A DNA stretch of 64,000 nucleotides, taken from contig FZQV01000002.1 of assembly GCA_900199505.1 (NCBI GenBank), positions 62,001-126,000 of the forward strand, written 5' to 3'. Source of the DNA: Ruaniaceae bacterium KH17. Its GTDB lineage: Bacteria > Actinomycetota > Actinomycetes > Actinomycetales > Actinomycetaceae. The notes under the pieces are model-generated. The model was not told the origin of the DNA, made no database searches, and saw only the letters and a list, made by a program, of their open reading frames with translations. The translations under genes were made by a program, and so were the position numbers. Below, in pieces: positions 21,513 to 58,306 of the stretch. Numbering within the stretch: the first letter of the stretch is position 1; every line of letters starts with the position of its first letter.

Positions 21513-21565
21513 GGATCGATGGAAGCGGACTCTTACCAATGAGGGGAAGGGCAGGTCCAGACGCC

Positions 21566-21598
21566 TGTGGATACAGCCCCCTCGCGCGGTGTGGATAA
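21566..21598 (+). repeat. DnaA-box-pair repeat, copy 1
   Basis: TGTGGATA at 21566-21573 and TGTGGATAA at 21590-21598, 24 bp apart, joined by CAGCCCCCTCGCGCGG. The second site is an exact complement of the DnaA box TTATCCACA. Near-identical copies lie at 51772-51803 and 58210-58242. Confidence 0.75.
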
Positions 21599-21647
21599 CT
21601 GTCCCTTAGGCGATCTTGCTGGGCGCCTATCCGCGCAGTCCCGGACG

Positions 21648-33836: not shown

Positions 33837-33873
33837 GCGAGGCCGCATAGTCGCCGCCGGGCGGAATTACGCG

Positions 33874-33922
33874 TGATCTTGGCATTCAGTGAACGCTGAG
33901 CGTTCGCCTACTGCCAAGATCA
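33874..33922. repeat. Palindromic repeat family C, copy 1
   Basis: Outer arms TGATCTTGGCA (33874-33884) and TGCCAAGATCA (33912-33922), with an inner inverted repeat GAACGCT-G-AGCGTTC (33891-33905). The same sequence recurs at 34168-34215, and a looser form lies at 42356-42404. It is about 38 bp after glnD. Confidence 0.8.
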
Positions 33923-34360
33923 TGGCGCGCTCTGCGTCAGGCATTCTCGGGGGTTGACGGGACTGTTGGTCACCCTGCGCGAAGTCGCAGGGTCCAGGGG
34001 TGCTCCCGTAGGTTGAGCTGAGGCCGGAGACGAAATCTGGCGCGCGTGTTCATTGCGCTGGATCCGGGCGTGCTCTCGAGGCTGGGGATGATGCGGCCGA
34101 TCCACGTGCAACTGTCATTGCTGGTGCGGGGGAGTGCGATTCCAGGCTGGGGATGCGAGTGCATCGGGATCTTGGCACTCAGTGAACGCTGAGCGTTCGC
34201 CTACTGCCAAGATCATGGTGCTCACGGCATCCGGCATCCTCGGGGGTGTGCGAGCTCGGCGATTCTCGTGGGTTGAGCGAGCGTAGCGAGTCGAAACCCA
34301 GTAGGTGTCGGCCGCCACAGTCCGCTTCGAGGCTCATTGCCACATTCACTCGCCTATGAT
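33923..34360. other. Long repeat-rich intergenic region before the padR gene
   Basis: No gene is visible in 33837-34400. A ~85-bp tract beginning at the first family C palindrome (through CAGGCATTCTCGGGGGT) is duplicated from 34168 (through CCGGCATCCTCGGGGGT). CCCTGCG/CGCAGGG (33973-33992) can form a hairpin, and GGGTTGAGCGAGCG with GAGTCGAAACCC (34269-34301) resembles common REP-like palindromes. Short open frames here lack support. Confidence 0.6.
34168..34215. repeat. Palindromic repeat family C, copy 2
   Basis: Differs from copy 1 at only about one position over 47 bp (CACTCAGTG for CATTCAGTG), with the same inner GAACGCTGAGCGTTC. The copies are ~290 bp apart in direct orientation. Confidence 0.82.
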
Positions 34361-34387
34361 CTTGCTTTACAAGTCTTGCTATACAAG
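34361..34387. promoter_or_regulatory. Tandem palindromic operator of the PadR regulator
   Basis: CTTGCTTTACAAG (34361-34373) and CTTGCTATACAAG (34375-34387) are two near-identical CTTG-N5-CAAG palindromes 14 bp apart, ending 13 bp before the padR ATG. TATACA within the second could be the -10. This fits autorepression by PadR. Confidence 0.65.
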
Positions 34388-34400
34388 GTAACTTCGGAGC

Positions 34401-34739
34401 ATGGCCGCAGACGGTGAACGGATCGCCACGAATATCCGCAAGGGAGTGCTCGAGTACTGTGTGCTCGCGCTCCTCTCGCGCGGTGAGATGTACGGCCTGC
34501 AGCTCGCCGACGAACTCGTGGAACGCGGCCTCACCGCAAGCGAGGGCAGCCTGTATCCGCTGCTGGCGCGGATGCGTGATGCGGGCAGCGTCACCACGAG
34601 GTGGGAGTCCGCGGACTCCGGCCGAGCTCGCCGCTACTACGAGATCACGGATACAGGCCGTGAGCAGCTTGCGCTCTTCGCCGAAGTCTGGCGGGGCATG
34701 GCGCCGCAGGTGGGCGCTCTTCTCAAGGAGGAACCATGA
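34401..34739 (+). CDS. PadR-family transcriptional regulator
   Basis: A 112-residue protein with the PadR winged helix: RKGVLEYCVLALLSRGEMYGLQLADELVERG, SEGSLYPLLARMRDAGSV and the wing RARRYYEITDTGREQL. The short C-terminal helix (LFAEVWRGMAPQVGALL) places it in the small PadR-s2 group. It overlaps the HAAS membrane protein gene by 4 bp, a common pair in Gram-positive bacteria in which PadR represses the operon. Tandem palindromes lie just upstream. Confidence 0.92.
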   Translation: MAADGERIATNIRKGVLEYCVLALLSRGEMYGLQLADELVERGLTASEGSLYPLLARMRDAGSVTTRWESADSGRARRYYEITDTGREQLALFAEVWRGMAPQVGALLKEEP

Positions 34740-35704
34740 ACGAGGTTGACCGCTACCTGCAGGCGCTGGATGCGGCCCTCGCCAAGGTGCCGTTGCACTC
34801 ACGGCAGGCAATTGCCGACGACGTTCGGGCGCACATCGCGGACGCGCTCGAGGAGGGCCGCGAGCCGGGGTCGGTACTCGCTGCGCTCGGCGCCCCCGAG
34901 GAGGTGGCGCGCGCGGCCCGCGAGGAGCTTGGTGAAGCGCCGGGGGAGGAGCCCATCGTGCGCGCCGATCCCGCCACGAAGGCGCAACGGCTCCTGCTCT
35001 GGGCGGCGTTGGCGATTGGGGTGGTGACAGCCGTACTGATCACCTTCCTAATGCCAATGTACGAAGGAATCTCGACGGAAACGACCGTTGACGGTGTTGA
35101 AATCACGACCACCGCAACGGCAACTCTCTTCGAGGAGATGGGGATCGCTGTCGGGCTGATTCCGCTACTTCCCGCCGCGCTCGTACTGCTGCCGCTCCTA
35201 CTGCCAGAGCGGTTGCAGCGGCCCTTCGGGTGGGGTGTAGCCGCGGCGGTGACGGTCTTCAGCGTGATCGCCGGGTTTACGATCGGTGCCTTCTATCTAC
35301 CCATGGCGTTCGTGCTGTGGGCGGCAATGCTCGTTCCCGTGTGGATCCGCTGCGGCCGTCACCCTCGGTCCGGACTCGCCTGGCGAGTTGCTGGCGCGCT
35401 GGCTATCGCCCTGCCGGTGGTCCTGGTCCTGGTGGCCGCGCTGGGTCGGACCGTCGAACTGGTGGCGGTGCCGTTCGGCCTCACCGCCGCCGTCGTGCTG
35501 GTGGTTGCTGTGCTCTTCGGGATGCGGCGGCCATATGCGGACGTGGTGGCTGCCGTGCTCGGGGCCGGGATGATGCTAGCGGCGGTTCTACCCGGCGATC
35601 TGCTGATGATGGCGTTCTGGTGGACCGGCGGGCTCTGGCTGACGATCGGTCTCAGCGCGATCGCGGCGAGGATCAGTGCGCCTTCTTCGGGATCAGGTGG
35701 ATGA
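34736..35704 (+). CDS. HAAS-domain multi-pass membrane protein
   Basis: A 322-residue protein. Residues 1-75 form a HAAS (DUF1700-like) helical domain (VDRYLQALDAALAKVPLHSR, ADALEEGREPGSVLAALGAPEEVAR). Eight or so membrane segments follow from ~82 to ~312. RBS AAGGAGG lies before ATG 34736. PadR-HAAS pairs often control or accompany export or envelope-stress functions, but the role is unknown. The last ~10 codons (APSSGSGG) come from a 31-bp fragment of the DUF808 gene, so the original C terminus may have been replaced. Confidence 0.82.
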   Translation: MNEVDRYLQALDAALAKVPLHSRQAIADDVRAHIADALEEGREPGSVLAALGAPEEVARAAREELGEAPGEEPIVRADPATKAQRLLLWAALAIGVVTAVLITFLMPMYEGISTETTVDGVEITTTATATLFEEMGIAVGLIPLLPAALVLLPLLLPERLQRPFGWGVAAAVTVFSVIAGFTIGAFYLPMAFVLWAAMLVPVWIRCGRHPRSGLAWRVAGALAIALPVVLVLVAALGRTVELVAVPFGLTAAVVLVVAVLFGMRRPYADVVAAVLGAGMMLAAVLPGDLLMMAFWWTGGLWLTIGLSAIAARISAPSSGSGG

Positions 35705-35712
35705 TTCCGGCC
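35682..35712. repeat. 31-bp fragment of the DUF808 3' end
   Basis: CTTCTTCGGGATCAGGTGGA and the next 11 bases match the 3' end of the DUF808 pseudogene copy (36343 onward) with one mismatch. It overlaps the HAAS gene stop. This is a third, very short copy of the sequence that flanks the cassette at 36.6-38.35 kb. Confidence 0.7.
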
Positions 35713-35901
35713 TGATCGGGGGAGCCTCGAGTATTGAACACTGTACCGTTCAGGGCTTGGTGCTCAGTCCGGTGCTGTTCTGGGGAGGCTCTCCGAGGCG
35801 ATGGGGATCGCCGTCAGGATGGCATCGCGGTGGTGCCGCTGGCACTCCTCGGGCCGTGAGGTAGCTTTCGCGACTCCCTTGGACGGTGGAAGGATAGGGG
35901 A

Positions 35902-36318
35902 GTGAACTTCGTATTCTCGGCCGACGACGTGCCCTCCCTTGAGGAACTCGTCGCACTCTACGATTCGGTCGGTTGGACCACCTACACCCGCGATCCGGAA
36001 CGGTTGGCGGCAGCGGTCGGGGCATCGCTCAGGGTTGTGACCGCACGGGCCGACGGTGTCCTCGTGGGGCTCGCGCGCGCCGTCGGCGATGGGCTCACAA
36101 TCGTGTACGTGCAGGACATTCTTGTTGCGCCACATCACCAGCGCGCCGGCGTGGGCCGTGGTCTCGTAACGCGTCTACTTGAGCCGTTCTCGGACGTGCG
36201 GCAGAAGGTGCTCCTGACGGACGCGGAGCCTGGGCAGCGTGCCTTCTACGAATCGCTCGGCTTCACCGAGATTCGAGACATGGAGCCGAACCTGCGCGCG
36301 TTTGTCCGCTTTGGTTAA
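35902..36318 (+). CDS. GNAT-family N-acetyltransferase
   Basis: A 138-residue GNAT protein with VYVQDILVAPHHQRAGVGRGLVTRLLE (acetyl-CoA loop HQRAGVGRG) and the C-terminal AFYESLGFTEI. GTG start 35902 follows AAGGAT by 6 nt, another leaderless arrangement. Substrate unknown. It lies between the 31-bp and the 219-bp DUF808 fragments. Confidence 0.87.
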   Translation: MNFVFSADDVPSLEELVALYDSVGWTTYTRDPERLAAAVGASLRVVTARADGVLVGLARAVGDGLTIVYVQDILVAPHHQRAGVGRGLVTRLLEPFSDVRQKVLLTDAEPGQRAFYESLGFTEIRDMEPNLRAFVRFG

Positions 36319-36333
36319 CCTCGCTCGTGGGAG

Positions 36334-36564
36334 CTAGTGGTTCTTCTTCGGGATCAAGTGGATGATTCCGGCCACGATCGAGCCCACGATGAAGCCGAGG
36401 ATCGCCGAGAAGAACGTGTTCGCCAGCCACGCGAAGAAGCCGGACCAGAACGGCATGAAGCCGGCTACGGCTTGCTCCATGTGGTGAACGACGTCGTGCG
36501 GCAGGGCCCAGCCGAGATCGTTGATGCCGTTCAGCAGGATGTGGCCGCCCACCCACACCATCGC
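36334..36564 (-). pseudogene. Truncated duplicate of the DUF808 gene (C-terminal 75 codons)
   Basis: On the minus strand the frame from MVWVGGHILLNGINDLGW to IIHLIPKKNH and its TAG stop matches the last ~75 codons of the DUF808 gene at 38349-39284. The aligned 219 bp (36346-36564 against 38361-38579) contain no indel and about 13 differences by my count. The 5' part is missing and has no start of its own. The two copies are in direct orientation and bracket the two-gene cassette. Confidence 0.88.
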
Positions 36565-36674
36565 AGCATGACACTGAGACCGTCGAATCCATGACGTGGA
36601 CAACGACGGCAGAGTAGATTGAAGAGGTGATGCAGCCATCAAGGACGGCACCCAAAGATTGGAGGAGTGTTCCA

Positions 36675-37832
36675 GTGAGATCAAAGAAGATCGGTTGGGG
36701 AATGGCAGTTGCAATGATCCTCGCTGTAGTCCCATCGAGCGTTGCTGCGGATGAAGGGGAGTCGGACGGCTCTGGCAAGGTTCAGTTCACGATCAGCGGG
36801 TATCTCGACGGTAATCTCACCGAGCCGGCCGACGCGAGGGAGCGAGTGTCCTCGGGATCAGACGAGTCGTACGGGGTCCATCTGTTGGAGGCGCAAGACG
36901 GTCGGACCTACGCGCTTGCAGACGTGTCTTTGACGGAAAGCGAGTATGGTCAGGCTCCGGCAATGTGGGCCGCCAGCTCAGAGTTTGTCGATCTCTCGTG
37001 GACAGCACTGCCTGGAGTTCGCGAGTACTCGATTTATCGAGAAGACCGACTGATTGAGACTGTCGCCACCACCTCATACCGCGACACTAGTTTCCGAGCT
37101 GATGACAGTCCGATCGACTACCGTGTCGAAGCGGTGCTTCCTTCGGCTGATGTCGAAGGTAGAATTTGGGGATTCCTAGTGAGTGTGCCGAGCGCGTCAT
37201 CCACTGATTCCGCGAGCATGCTTGAGGATCTGGCGGAATATCGCGGGACGCTCGCCACCTATACTTCTACTGGTGTGCAGCATCAGACGTTCATCCCACA
37301 GGCGAAGATAGCGGCGCCAGGGATCGGATGTGAGTACGGCAAAGGGTACAAGTTCGGAGGCGACAACAGGTCTTTTCAGCCGGGCGGAAAATCCCGAACG
37401 CGAGTGACAGCATCCATCGATTGGACAAAGAGCGGCTCAATGACAAGTTCAAAGAAGGTTGGAGCCACCACCGTCTATAACTCGTCTGGAACGCTCGTTG
37501 CGACGAAAACGGCGTCCTCCGCCAATATGTCGGTGACGAAGCTTGGAGCGTCCACCAGCACTTCGATTGATTTGCGATACAAGGTCACTGCAGGAAACCC
37601 GTTCTGTTTAAAGGCAGTGCCTATTGACGCCGTCTTCACGATGACAGTGACACGATCGGGGAGTTGGTCGATCATTTCCGGCAATCACAAGCAGATGCCT
37701 AATCACGAACTGTATATTCACAATGGAGCGAAGTGGACGACCGCATACAAGGCGTCCTATGCGAGCGATTACTGCCTTATCGAGATGGCTTGTGAACGCG
37801 CGAACATGAGTGGTCGCGTTGGCTCATACTGA
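36675..37832 (+). CDS. Secreted protein of unknown function with an FnIII-like domain
   Basis: From GTG 36675 (RBS GGAGGAG 7 nt upstream) the product is 385 residues with a clear Sec signal peptide MRSKKIGWGMAVAMILAVVP cut near SSVAA. An FnIII-like segment follows (EFVDLSWTALPGVREYSIYR, SYRDTSFRA, DYRVEAV). The C-terminal ~200 residues are rich in Ser, Thr and Lys, with four Cys (GIGCEYG, PFCLKA, YCLIEMACE) that may form disulfides. I do not recognise a family for it. Codon use and GC are visibly lower than in the neighbours. It overlaps the next gene by 23 bp and so is probably co-translated. Confidence 0.75.
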   Translation: MRSKKIGWGMAVAMILAVVPSSVAADEGESDGSGKVQFTISGYLDGNLTEPADARERVSSGSDESYGVHLLEAQDGRTYALADVSLTESEYGQAPAMWAASSEFVDLSWTALPGVREYSIYREDRLIETVATTSYRDTSFRADDSPIDYRVEAVLPSADVEGRIWGFLVSVPSASSTDSASMLEDLAEYRGTLATYTSTGVQHQTFIPQAKIAAPGIGCEYGKGYKFGGDNRSFQPGGKSRTRVTASIDWTKSGSMTSSKKVGATTVYNSSGTLVATKTASSANMSVTKLGASTSTSIDLRYKVTAGNPFCLKAVPIDAVFTMTVTRSGSWSIISGNHKQMPNHELYIHNGAKWTTAYKASYASDYCLIEMACERANMSGRVGSY

Positions 37833-38352
37833 TGCGAATCCTCGTCGACACTGGGCGTCGATTGCGCTCGCACTGTTGGCGGGCGGTCTGCTCTTCGTCG
37901 GCCAGGGACTCCCTTTGGCAGTTGGGCAGGCGGTCGAACGCTGGAGTACAGACATTATTGAGCCGGGTACGTATCTCGATAAGACTGCGATGGAACGATG
38001 GATGTCACTCCCATTCTGGTCAGAGTTGGTATGGCAGTGGGGAGTCGTCGTCTTTGGTGCAGTCCTCTTTGCGGGCAGTCTCGGGATACTTCGTTTGCGA
38101 TGGCTGCATGTCGTCACCTTCGCATCGTTAGCTCTCGGTGGATACCTGATGCCAAGCATGATCAGTCAGGGGCTGTCTCCCGATAATGTCTACGACTTCG
38201 GTCAGGTGATCGAACGGGAAGTCATCTTCTCTCTGGCTTTCGGCTATGGCGTCGTCGCATGGGTCATCGCTGCAGGCTACATGCTCGTGGTGACGCGAGG
38301 TCACTCTACTGAGGGGGAGGGAGTCGCGACATGCGATGAAGATCAGGATTAG
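37810..38352 (+). CDS. Four-TM membrane protein of unknown function, partner of the secreted protein
   Basis: A 180-residue protein with four predicted membrane helices (SIALALLAGGLLFVGQGLPL; VWQWGVVVFGAVLFAGSLGI; LHVVTFASLALGGYLMPSMI; VIFSLAFGYGVVAWVIAAGY). The loop between helices 1 and 2 is outside and hydrophilic. GTG start inside the end of the secreted-protein gene. No family recognised. By layout it could secure, export or give immunity to the secreted product; this is inference. Its stop touches the DUF808 stop tail to tail. Confidence 0.7.
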   Translation: MVALAHTDANPRRHWASIALALLAGGLLFVGQGLPLAVGQAVERWSTDIIEPGTYLDKTAMERWMSLPFWSELVWQWGVVVFGAVLFAGSLGILRLRWLHVVTFASLALGGYLMPSMISQGLSPDNVYDFGQVIEREVIFSLAFGYGVVAWVIAAGYMLVVTRGHSTEGEGVATCDEDQD

Positions 38353-39419
38353 CGTGGCCGCTTCGGGATCAAGTGGATGATTCCGGTCACGATCGAGCCC
38401 ACGATGAAGCCGAGGATCGCCGAGAAGAACGTGTTCGTCAGCCACGCGAAGAAGCCGGGCCAGAACGGCATGAAGCCGGCGACGGCTTGCTCCATGTGGT
38501 GAACGACGTCGTGCGGCCAGGCCCAGCCCAGATCCGCGATGCCGTTGAGCAGGATGTGGCCACCCACCCACACCATGGCGATTGTGCCGACCACGGAAAG
38601 CACCGTCATCACCTTGGGCATCGCGCCAACGAGGAGTGCGCCGAAGCGCCGGGAGGCGCCATTCTCGCGCCCCGCAAGGGCAAGACCGATGTCGTCGAGC
38701 TTCACGATCAGCGCCACCACGCCGTAGACGAGCGCGGTGATCAGAAGGGCGACGACGATCAGCGCGCCGAGTCGAAGCCAGATCGACTCCGCTGAGACCT
38801 CGTTGAGCGCGATCACCATGATCTCGGCCGAGAGGATGAAATCGGTCCGGACGGCGCCGCCCACGAGCGTCTTCTCCTGATCCGGTCCTCGCTCGACAGC
38901 GGGGGGCGCCTCCGCATGATGCTTTCCGGTGACGAACTCCCAGATCTTCTCGGCGCCTTCAAAGCAGAGGTAGGTGCCACCGATCATGAGCAGCGGGGTG
39001 AGTGCCCACGGTGCGAAGACGCTGAGGAGCATGACCGCCGGCAGGATGAACACGAGCTTGTTGCGGAGCGAGCCCTTGGTGATCTTCCAGATGATGGGTA
39101 GCTCGCGCGCGGGGGTGATCCCTCCCACGTAGCGTGGGGTCACGGCGGCGTCGTCGATCACCACGCCCAACGCTTTCGTGCTTGCCCGCCCCGCTGCAGC
39201 ACCGACGTCGTCGATCGAGGCTGCGGCAAGCTTCGCGAGCGCCGCGATGTCGTCCAGAAGTGCCGCGAGTCCGCCTGCGATGATCGTGCCTTTCGCCGTG
39301 CCAGCGGAAGTGCTGTGCGAGATGAGTCTACGGCCTCGGCCCGCTCGAACGCCGTCGGCGTGGCGAACTGGTAGCTGTAGTGGCGTGCCAGCGGTCTGAG
39401 ACGCCAACACAACTACCAC
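38349..39419 (-). CDS. DUF808 (YedI-like) integral membrane protein
   Basis: The conserved region begins at AGGLAALLDDIAALAKLAAASIDD and runs ~310 residues, with VSGVxANRELP-like GGITPARELPIIWKITKGSLRNK, ALTPLLMIGGTYLCFEGAEKIWE and about six membrane segments, the pattern of YedI/DUF808. The first canonical start codons in frame (39419, 39410, 39407) lie in the palindromic repeat at 39369-39418 and add ~45 atypical residues. Homologues start where this frame has ATC (39284), 4 nt after GAAAGG, so either ATC is used or the upstream start has been taken over. The 3' end is duplicated at 36334-36564. Function unknown. Confidence 0.85.
   Translation of the reverse strand: MVVVLASQTAGTPLQLPVRHADGVRAGRGRRLISHSTSAGTAKGTIIAGGLAALLDDIAALAKLAAASIDDVGAAAGRASTKALGVVIDDAAVTPRYVGGITPARELPIIWKITKGSLRNKLVFILPAVMLLSVFAPWALTPLLMIGGTYLCFEGAEKIWEFVTGKHHAEAPPAVERGPDQEKTLVGGAVRTDFILSAEIMVIALNEVSAESIWLRLGALIVVALLITALVYGVVALIVKLDDIGLALAGRENGASRRFGALLVGAMPKVMTVLSVVGTIAMVWVGGHILLNGIADLGWAWPHDVVHHMEQAVAGFMPFWPGFFAWLTNTFFSAILGFIVGSIVTGIIHLIPKRPR
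39369..39418. repeat. Palindromic repeat family A, copy 3 (degenerate)
   Basis: TGGTAGCTGTAGTGGCGT (39369-39386) and ACGCCAACACAACTACCA (39401-39418) pair at 15 of 18 positions and keep the centre GCCAGCGGTCTGAG of the family. It supplies the only canonical start codons of the DUF808 frame. Confidence 0.75.
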
Positions 39420-39505
39420 AGTGGCCGACGGCGATCGGCCGGGGAGCGCGGTGAGGTCCGGGGGCGCGATACCCTAGGTAGCTGAGCCAAACCGAAGGGT
39501 AGCTA

Positions 39506-51748: not shown

Positions 51749-51771
51749 CGGTGAACGGGCTGGTGTAGCTC

Positions 51772-51803
51772 TATCCACACCGCGCGAGGGGACTGTATCC
51801 ACA
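51772..51803 (-). repeat. DnaA-box-pair repeat, copy 2
   Basis: On the minus strand TGTGGATA (51803-51796) and TGTGGATA (51779-51772), 24 bp apart, joined by CAGTCCCCTCGCGCGG, which is identical to copy 3. It lies between ptsI and yraN. Confidence 0.75.
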
Positions 51804-51856
51804 GGCAGTTCATTTCGCGCTTTCGCTCCCATCGCCTCAGCGCTCACGCTGTCGGC

Positions 51857-58156: not shown

Positions 58157-58209
58157 GATGCGAGCCTCGCCTGCGGACGCGATCGCCGTCGACCAGGAGA
58201 TGCGGTGCC

Positions 58210-58242
58210 TGTGGATACAGTCCCCTCGCGCGGTGTGGATAA
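58210..58242 (+). repeat. DnaA-box-pair repeat, copy 3
   Basis: TGTGGATA (58210-58217) and TGTGGATAA (58234-58242), 24 bp apart, joined by CAGTCCCCTCGCGCGG. It lies 54 bp before the M23 gene's start and ~65 bp before the rpsB promoter. Confidence 0.75.
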
Positions 58243-58306
58243 CGGTGCACTAGCGAGCGTGGCGGACGCCTCAGGGATCGTGGCAGGGGAGCACCCCGCG
58301 ATCCGC

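What the first reader, a model, noticed from the sequence alone, without database searches (positions are those of the whole stretch)
36334..38579. Two-gene accessory cassette bracketed by 219-bp copies of a DUF808 gene end
36346-36564 and 38361-38579 align over 219 bp without indels (~13 differences) in direct orientation. Between them are a secreted, Cys-containing protein and an overlapping four-TM protein, with GC clearly lower than the flanks. The layout is what integration by homologous recombination into the DUF808 3' end, or exchange of cassettes at that site, would leave. Secreted product plus membrane partner recalls effector-immunity or bacteriocin-like pairs; the function is not known. 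This is my best candidate for an undescribed system.
Basis: partly seen in the sequence, partly recalled or inferred. Interest (0 to 1): 0.7.

Follow-up and report, generated by a model that had tools for sequence, protein, structure and literature searches.

The report
Secreted DUF3238 protein with membrane partner
Two genes of foreign character sit beside the end of an ordinary gene that has been copied piecemeal; one encodes a secreted protein and the other a small membrane protein, and the same partnership recurs in distant bacteria in a way that looks like an undescribed antibacterial toxin with its protective partner, though it has not been tested at the bench here.

Summary
The 219-bp repeat is real (94%), and a third, shorter DUF808 tail lies further left. 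Three DUF808 3' ends, each with its own stop and different last residues, are stacked, with a different gene converging on each (HAAS, GNAT, secreted + 4-TM), as successive one-sided captures at one gene end would leave. The secreted protein is signal segment + Fn3-like part + C-terminal DUF3238, a Pfam family of unknown function. Relatives lie on Bacillus, Priestia, Exiguobacterium and Arthrobacter plasmids and in genomes of the window's own class, often beside a small protein with 3-5 hydrophobic segments: 15 of 20 loci against 2 of 89 other genes on five of the same plasmids, and 11 of 21 new loci against 0 of 20 controls. The 18 DUF3238 proteins compared form one BLAST group even by their C-terminal 200 residues; 16 partners form 12 groups. 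This is the anatomy of a polymorphic toxin with membrane immunity, and I judge a Sec-secreted, membrane-directed toxin with its immunity protein most likely (0.6). Toxicity, target and fold are not shown; both structure predictions failed.

The parts
35673..35712 (-). DUF808 tail 0: last codons (GIIHLIPKKAH, TGA stop), overlapped by the 3' end of the HAAS gene
   Evidence: 28-bp match E 3.4e-6 in own genome; frame read; stop read
34736..35704 (+). HAAS-domain protein (PadR-type regulator just upstream, 34401-34739); its stop lies inside tail 0
   Evidence: Pfam HAAS E 1.4e-11, PadR E 1.5e-22; stop TGA
35902..36318 (+). GNAT acetyltransferase, gene of the first captured cassette; 15 bp lie between its stop and the tail 1 stop
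   Evidence: Pfam Acetyltransf_7 E 6e-11; stop TAA
36334..36564 (-). DUF808 tail 1: last 77 codons incl. stop (HLIPKKNH*), open throughout
36675..37832 (+). Secreted protein, 385 aa from the GTG with a GGAGGAG upstream: hydrophobic signal segment, Fn3-like region (about residues 95-165), DUF3238 at residues 203-348
   Evidence: ORF; DUF3238 E 1.2e-8, 35.5 bits, cut-off 21.1; profile match to 3c5p E 4.6e-19 and to Fn3-like chains; signal segment judged by eye, no signal-peptide predictor was run
37281..37718 (+). DUF3238 domain, the candidate toxin domain
   Evidence: in the 9-row alignment A1 F206, G229, D230, R232, R241, A280, P309, P342 are invariant
37810..38352 (+). 180-aa protein with four hydrophobic segments, candidate immunity protein; starts inside the secreted gene, stop overlaps the DUF808 stop
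   Evidence: hydropathy segments starting at residues 18, 78, 101, 138; no Pfam or NCBIfam match
38349..39419 (-). Full-length DUF808 gene; 38361-38579 is the other copy of the repeat
   Evidence: Pfam DUF808 E 1.5e-126
33837..39505 (.). glnD-ffh interval of 5.67 kb that holds the whole accessory block
   Evidence: 46-737 bp in the 11 of 28 relatives in which glnD lay in the fetched stretch

Best explanation
The pair is an antibacterial toxin and its immunity gene. The first protein is exported by Sec, its Fn3-like N-terminal part holds it to or carries it across the wall of a competitor, and its C-terminal DUF3238 domain acts at the cytoplasmic membrane; the overlapping 4-TM protein sits in the producer's own membrane and blocks it there. 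The pair entered this genome as a cassette: donor DNA anchored by homology in the DUF808 gene and joined at a non-homologous or short-homology end inside the recipient's DUF808 tail, so the old tail was left behind. This happened twice (GNAT cassette, then this one). Shown here: the stacked tails, different composition, domain make-up, the recurrent pairing with controls, and dissimilar partners. Inferred: toxicity, wall binding, membrane target, immunity, and the order and mechanism of capture.
For: Pairing: 15 of 20 DUF3238 loci have an ORF of 60-200 aa with at least three hydrophobic segments within 380 bp, against 2 of 89 other large genes on five of the same plasmids, p 1.9e-12. A later set gives 11 of 21 against 0 of 20 Fn3-only genes from the same two groups of genomes, p 1.1e-4; all large genes in those 20 control stretches give 2 of 111. 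Partners differ: one BLASTP group for 18 DUF3238 proteins, whole or C-terminal 200 residues, and 12 groups for 16 partners; they lie downstream, upstream or divergent. DUF3238 is C-terminal behind different modules: SH3-like and Fn3 (both under Pfam's cut-offs) in L154, Fn3 in L133 and L142. Mobile settings: 14 plasmid records match, 11 typed mobilizable; an LXG toxin gene follows in L139. Lower GC; absent from the 212 other family genomes searched. Capture: three DUF808 ends with different last residues; at least 31 of 109 relatives' ends finish in AH, like tail 0; each plus-strand neighbour ends on or 15 bp from a DUF808 stop.
Against: No toxicity datum exists. 5 of 20 and 10 of 21 loci fail the rule. 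The rule was written after the first loci had been looked at, and its distance was widened from 350 to 380 bp, which took in L154; at 350 bp it is 14 of 20. Background is higher in some high-GC stretches: 3 of 30 other large genes in the window and 3 of 5 in L138 also meet it. Pfam reaches DUF3238 in only 6 of 12 relatives scanned. L145 and L147 have no partner and L147 no signal segment; the 3c5p chain is 197 residues, so the domain may have other jobs. UPF0715, the Bacillus partner family, has no DUF3238 within 3 kb in 7 of 7 further loci looked at, SPbeta yopD included. Both structure predictions were unusable (pLDDT 31 and 38). Membrane segments rest on hydropathy.
Confidence: 0.6

Rival explanations
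1. The secreted protein is a non-toxic surface or exo-protein (adhesin, enzyme or sugar-binding protein) and the small membrane protein is its export, anchoring or signalling partner.
For: Fn3 and SH3-like parts are common in exo-enzymes (recalled; Fn3 found); 3c5p is catalogued only as a protein of unknown function; DUF3238 genes without a partner exist (L145, L147).
Against: An export or anchoring helper should be conserved with its client; here 16 partners fall into 12 BLAST groups while the clients form one, and gene order and orientation change.
Confidence: 0.23
2. The pair is an exclusion or anti-phage device of mobile elements rather than a bacteriocin-like toxin.
For: It is found on plasmids; SPbeta carries a UPF0715 gene, without DUF3238, near a gene annotated superinfection exclusion B.
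Against: No PADLOC model matches the secreted protein, the 4-TM protein, DUF808 or the GNAT; tblastn with the window protein finds no phage record, and with a Bacillus relative one weak 63-residue piece. An exported protein with Fn3 or SH3-like parts fits antagonism better (inference).
Confidence: 0.07
3. For the locus: a site-specific integrase or conjugative element with an attachment site in the DUF808 3' end made the repeats.
For: The homology of the copies stops 12 bp before the stop codon in both tail 1 and the gene, and a DUF808 end is present each time.
Against: No integrase or transposase among the interval genes searched; the left-over tails differ in length (about 40 and 231 bp) and in sequence, unlike an att core.
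Confidence: 0.12

Closest known systems
TspA/TsaI of Staphylococcus aureus (PMC7456083; abstract and start of the introduction seen)
   Same: C-terminal toxin domain, membrane-bound immunity protein encoded next to it, several immunity homologues
   Different: TspA is a type VII substrate; here the N-terminus looks Sec-like and the domain is DUF3238
CDI ionophore toxins with CdiI (PMC11630599; abstract and section list seen)
   Same: Immunity proteins highly polymorphic; variable part ahead of the toxic domain
   Different: Delivered by CdiA of E. coli; ionophore domains are predicted helix bundles, whereas DUF3238 gave mostly strands in a low-confidence model
Polymorphic toxin systems (PMC3482391; search listing and a word search only)
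   Same: C-terminal domains exchanged by recombination with standalone cassettes, adjacent immunity
   Different: The held text (first 300,000 characters) has no occurrence of DUF3238 or UPF0715
Effector swapping by homology-facilitated illegitimate recombination at the 3' end of vgrG in Pseudomonas aeruginosa (PMC11751169; three passages seen)
   Same: One dominant breakpoint at the 3' end of a conserved gene beside the effector, the other less precise
   Different: The anchor here is DUF808, not a secretion gene, and old tails stay behind as a stack

Membership tests
DUF3238 (PF11579) | Profile score above the curated cut-off | tested here: met
   35.5 bits against 21.1, E 1.2e-8
Polymorphic toxin-immunity system | Candidate toxin domain at the C-terminus behind exchangeable N-terminal modules | tested here: met
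   DUF3238 at 797-958 of 1004 (L154), 997-1164 of 1175 (L133), 353-431 of 463 (L142), 82-239 of 245 (L145); modules ahead: SH3-like and Fn3 under cut-off, Fn3, Fn3, none
Polymorphic toxin-immunity system | Adjacent small partner gene more often than chance | tested here: met
   15 of 20 vs 2 of 89; 11 of 21 vs 0 of 20; 2 of 111 in control stretches, but 3 of 5 in L138
Polymorphic toxin-immunity system | Partner diversifies faster than the toxin | tested here: inconclusive
   12 BLASTP groups among 16 partners, 1 among 18 DUF3238 proteins; short membrane proteins are also harder for BLAST to link
Polymorphic toxin-immunity system | Toxicity relieved by the partner | not testable with these tools
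   Needs a bench test
T7SS LXG toxins | N-terminal LXG/WXG targeting domain | tested here: not met
   No such Pfam or NCBIfam match to the secreted protein
UPF0715 (PF17094), partner family in Bacillus | Profile match of the window partner | tested here: not met
   No Pfam match; hhalign to A2, nine Firmicute partners, probability 0.1%
Integrative element or integron cassette | Integrase, or fixed recombination sites at both ends | tested here: not met
   No integrase among the interval genes searched; tails of different length and sequence

The most novel reading that the evidence does not exclude
DUF3238 defines an undescribed family of Sec-secreted polymorphic toxins of Gram-positive bacteria, carried by small and large plasmids and by chromosomal cassettes, each with an unrelated 3-5 TM immunity protein; and in this lineage the 3' end of DUF808 is a transposase-free docking point at which such cassettes stack by one-sided homologous recombination.
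Probability: 0.45. Interest if true: 0.75.

Novelty: new variant of a known kind. Interest (0 to 1): 0.62.

Why it matters
DUF3238 and UPF0715 are families of unknown function, and no paper in the library searched holds either name. The pairing found here gives both a testable function and links genes on Bacillus velezensis and B. subtilis plasmids to genomes of another phylum. If the toxin reading holds, it adds a family of secreted antibacterial proteins with membrane immunity that needs no dedicated secretion machine. The stacked DUF808 tails are a readable record of how accessory genes can be added at a gene end without a transposase.

Tried and rejected
Structure: two predictions of the secreted protein (alone, and with three viral-contig relatives) gave pLDDT 31 and 38, so I made no fold search. 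A scan of viral contigs with the window protein gave one hit, L148, whose ORF there reads like a thymidine kinase (my reading); dropped. Scans with two other queries gave none. PF11579 over 180 genomes of G251's family found none, but it also missed G251's own two copies, so that model is insensitive. With a model of alignment A1, 162 of 179 genomes of G251's genus match, but in the printed, cut list 14 genomes reach the DUF3238 part and the rest match around the Fn3 part; in G340's family 7 of 173 reach it. Homology between Firmicute and window partners was looked for and not found (a viral-contig partner likewise). Promoter and terminator scan: nothing above chance. PADLOC: no match. A regular expression meant to place a C-terminal motif failed on every row and was not used.

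In one search gene ends were taken from overlapping same-strand ORFs and may be too wide. With looser settings (17-residue segments, threshold 1.2, up to 700 bp, up to 260 aa), 7 of its 10 misses (L255, L256, L260, L264, L266, L267, L269) show a neighbour with 3-4 segments. That was done after the fact and without a control, so it is not counted.

Rows dropped before counts: of the Bacillus plasmids H2-H9 only L131 was counted (L130 and L132 were fetched and left out), H13 was counted with L134, and L156 with L155. The 20 controls are a choice of high-scoring Fn3-only hits, 16 from one group and 4 from the other. The 7 UPF0715 loci were picked from 39 records among those not already known to carry DUF3238.

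Full report
Observation. The 219-bp direct repeat at 36346-36564 and 38361-38579 is real, without gaps and 94% identical. The host genome holds a third match, 28 bp at 35685-35712. On the minus strand each is the C-terminal end of a DUF808 gene with its own stop: GIIHLIPKKAH, HLIPKKNH and HLIPKRPR. Tail 1 differs from the gene at 10 codons before the last three residues, five silent and five not, and stays open; the last three residues and the stop codon differ too. Of 109 DUF808 loci at least 31 end in AH and 43 in H, counted from the 15 commonest endings printed, so the two left-over tails look like ordinary DUF808 endings and the present gene has an unusual one.

Layout. Along the plus strand three sets of genes end on a DUF808 stop: PadR-HAAS with its stop inside tail 0, GNAT with 15 bp between its stop and that of tail 1, and secreted + 4-TM with a stop that overlaps the DUF808 stop. 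The block fills a 5.67-kb interval between glnD and ffh; in 11 of 28 relatives the interval is 46-737 bp, and in the other 17 glnD was not in the fetched stretch. In the 109 fetched loci of DUF808 relatives (29 with about 1.5 kb on each side, 80 with up to 6 kb) no match to ffh, glnD, PadR, HAAS, GNAT or the pair was found. I infer three alleles of one junction, stacked by two captures in which one end recombined in DUF808 and the other joined inside the old tail. An asymmetric breakpoint pattern of this kind at the 3' end of vgrG is described for effector swapping in Pseudomonas aeruginosa (PMC11751169, passages). No donor was found and the genus has one genome in the collection, so order and mechanism remain inference.

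The pair. The secreted protein (385 aa) has a hydrophobic N-terminus, an Fn3-like part and DUF3238 at residues 203-348. Its partner has 180 aa and four hydrophobic segments and matches no family. Each is found in 1 of 213 genomes of the family, the window's own. Wider searches: the DUF3238 model in 2 of 394 genomes of the class, the window's included; the whole protein in 6 of 396 genomes of the phylum, the window's included and three only in the Fn3 part; 14 of 72,556 plasmid records, 11 of them Bacillus; no phage record.

Pairing. Most of these relatives have a small membrane protein beside them: UPF0715 divergent from the gene on Bacillus plasmids, downstream on the P. aryabhattai, Exiguobacterium, B. 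carboniphilus and Arthrobacter plasmids and in three viral-contig loci, upstream on the same strand in Alkalihalophilus. From this I made a rule (ORF of 60-200 aa, three or more hydrophobic segments, within 350 bp): 13 of 18 loci. Widened to 380 bp and with two more loci it gives 15 of 20, against 2 of 89 other large genes on five of the same plasmids; other thresholds give 12-17 of 20 against 0-3 of 89; at 350 bp it is 14 of 20. The rule was thus fitted to loci already seen. I then took 21 new DUF3238 genes from two groups of genomes and 20 Fn3-only genes from the same groups: 11 of 21 against 0 of 20 by the 380-bp rule. All large genes in the 20 control stretches give 2 of 111, but in the window 3 of 30 other large genes meet the rule and in L138 3 of 5, so single high-GC loci prove little.

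Partner turnover. By BLASTP at 1e-3, 18 DUF3238 proteins form one connected group, also when only the last 200 residues are used, although Pfam's model reaches DUF3238 in only 6 of the 12 relatives scanned. Sixteen partners form 12 groups. Profile comparison does not join the window partner to the Firmicute ones. Dissimilar partners and changing gene position are expected of immunity proteins and not of a conserved export helper. Short membrane proteins lose BLAST similarity quickly, so part of this may be a limit of the method.

Mechanism. A membrane-bound immunity protein is known for a toxin that depolarises the cytoplasmic membrane, TspA with TsaI (PMC7456083, abstract). By that analogy I place the target of DUF3238 at the membrane. 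Invariant D230, R232 and R241, and a frequent but not invariant PNHE motif, could equally mean an enzyme acting on a membrane-bound substrate. This step is inference.

Against. UPF0715 has no DUF3238 within 3 kb in 7 of 7 further loci, including SPbeta yopD; unpaired immunity genes would look like that, but so would an unrelated function. L145 and L147 have no partner. The structure predictions failed. No paper held names DUF3238, UPF0715 or BAS0735; the library lacks most subscription journals.

Verdict.

Noticed in passing
33872-33954 and 34165-34247: Two 83-nt copies (89%) of an imperfect palindrome between glnD and PadR; 39 matches on both strands at about 25 places in the genome, so a REP-like element.
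   Followed up: partly
21563-21609, 58207-58253, inverted at 51759-51816: Another dispersed repeat of about 47-58 nt in the window, two copies direct and one inverted.
   Followed up: no
L257 (G1239 contig 268), 3045-4181 and 7658-8800: Two DUF3238 genes about 3.5 kb apart with a small ORF of three hydrophobic segments between them, possibly stacked systems.
   Followed up: no
L135, L255, L256, L260: In some genomes of G251's genus the neighbour is a small protein of 2-3 hydrophobic segments on the 5' side of the DUF3238 gene, alike by eye between loci, perhaps another partner family.
   Followed up: partly
L139 4358-6223 and L159 4556-6354: T7SS LXG toxin genes lie next to a DUF3238 gene on a Priestia plasmid and near a UPF0715 gene without DUF3238 on a Bacillus velezensis plasmid.
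   Followed up: no
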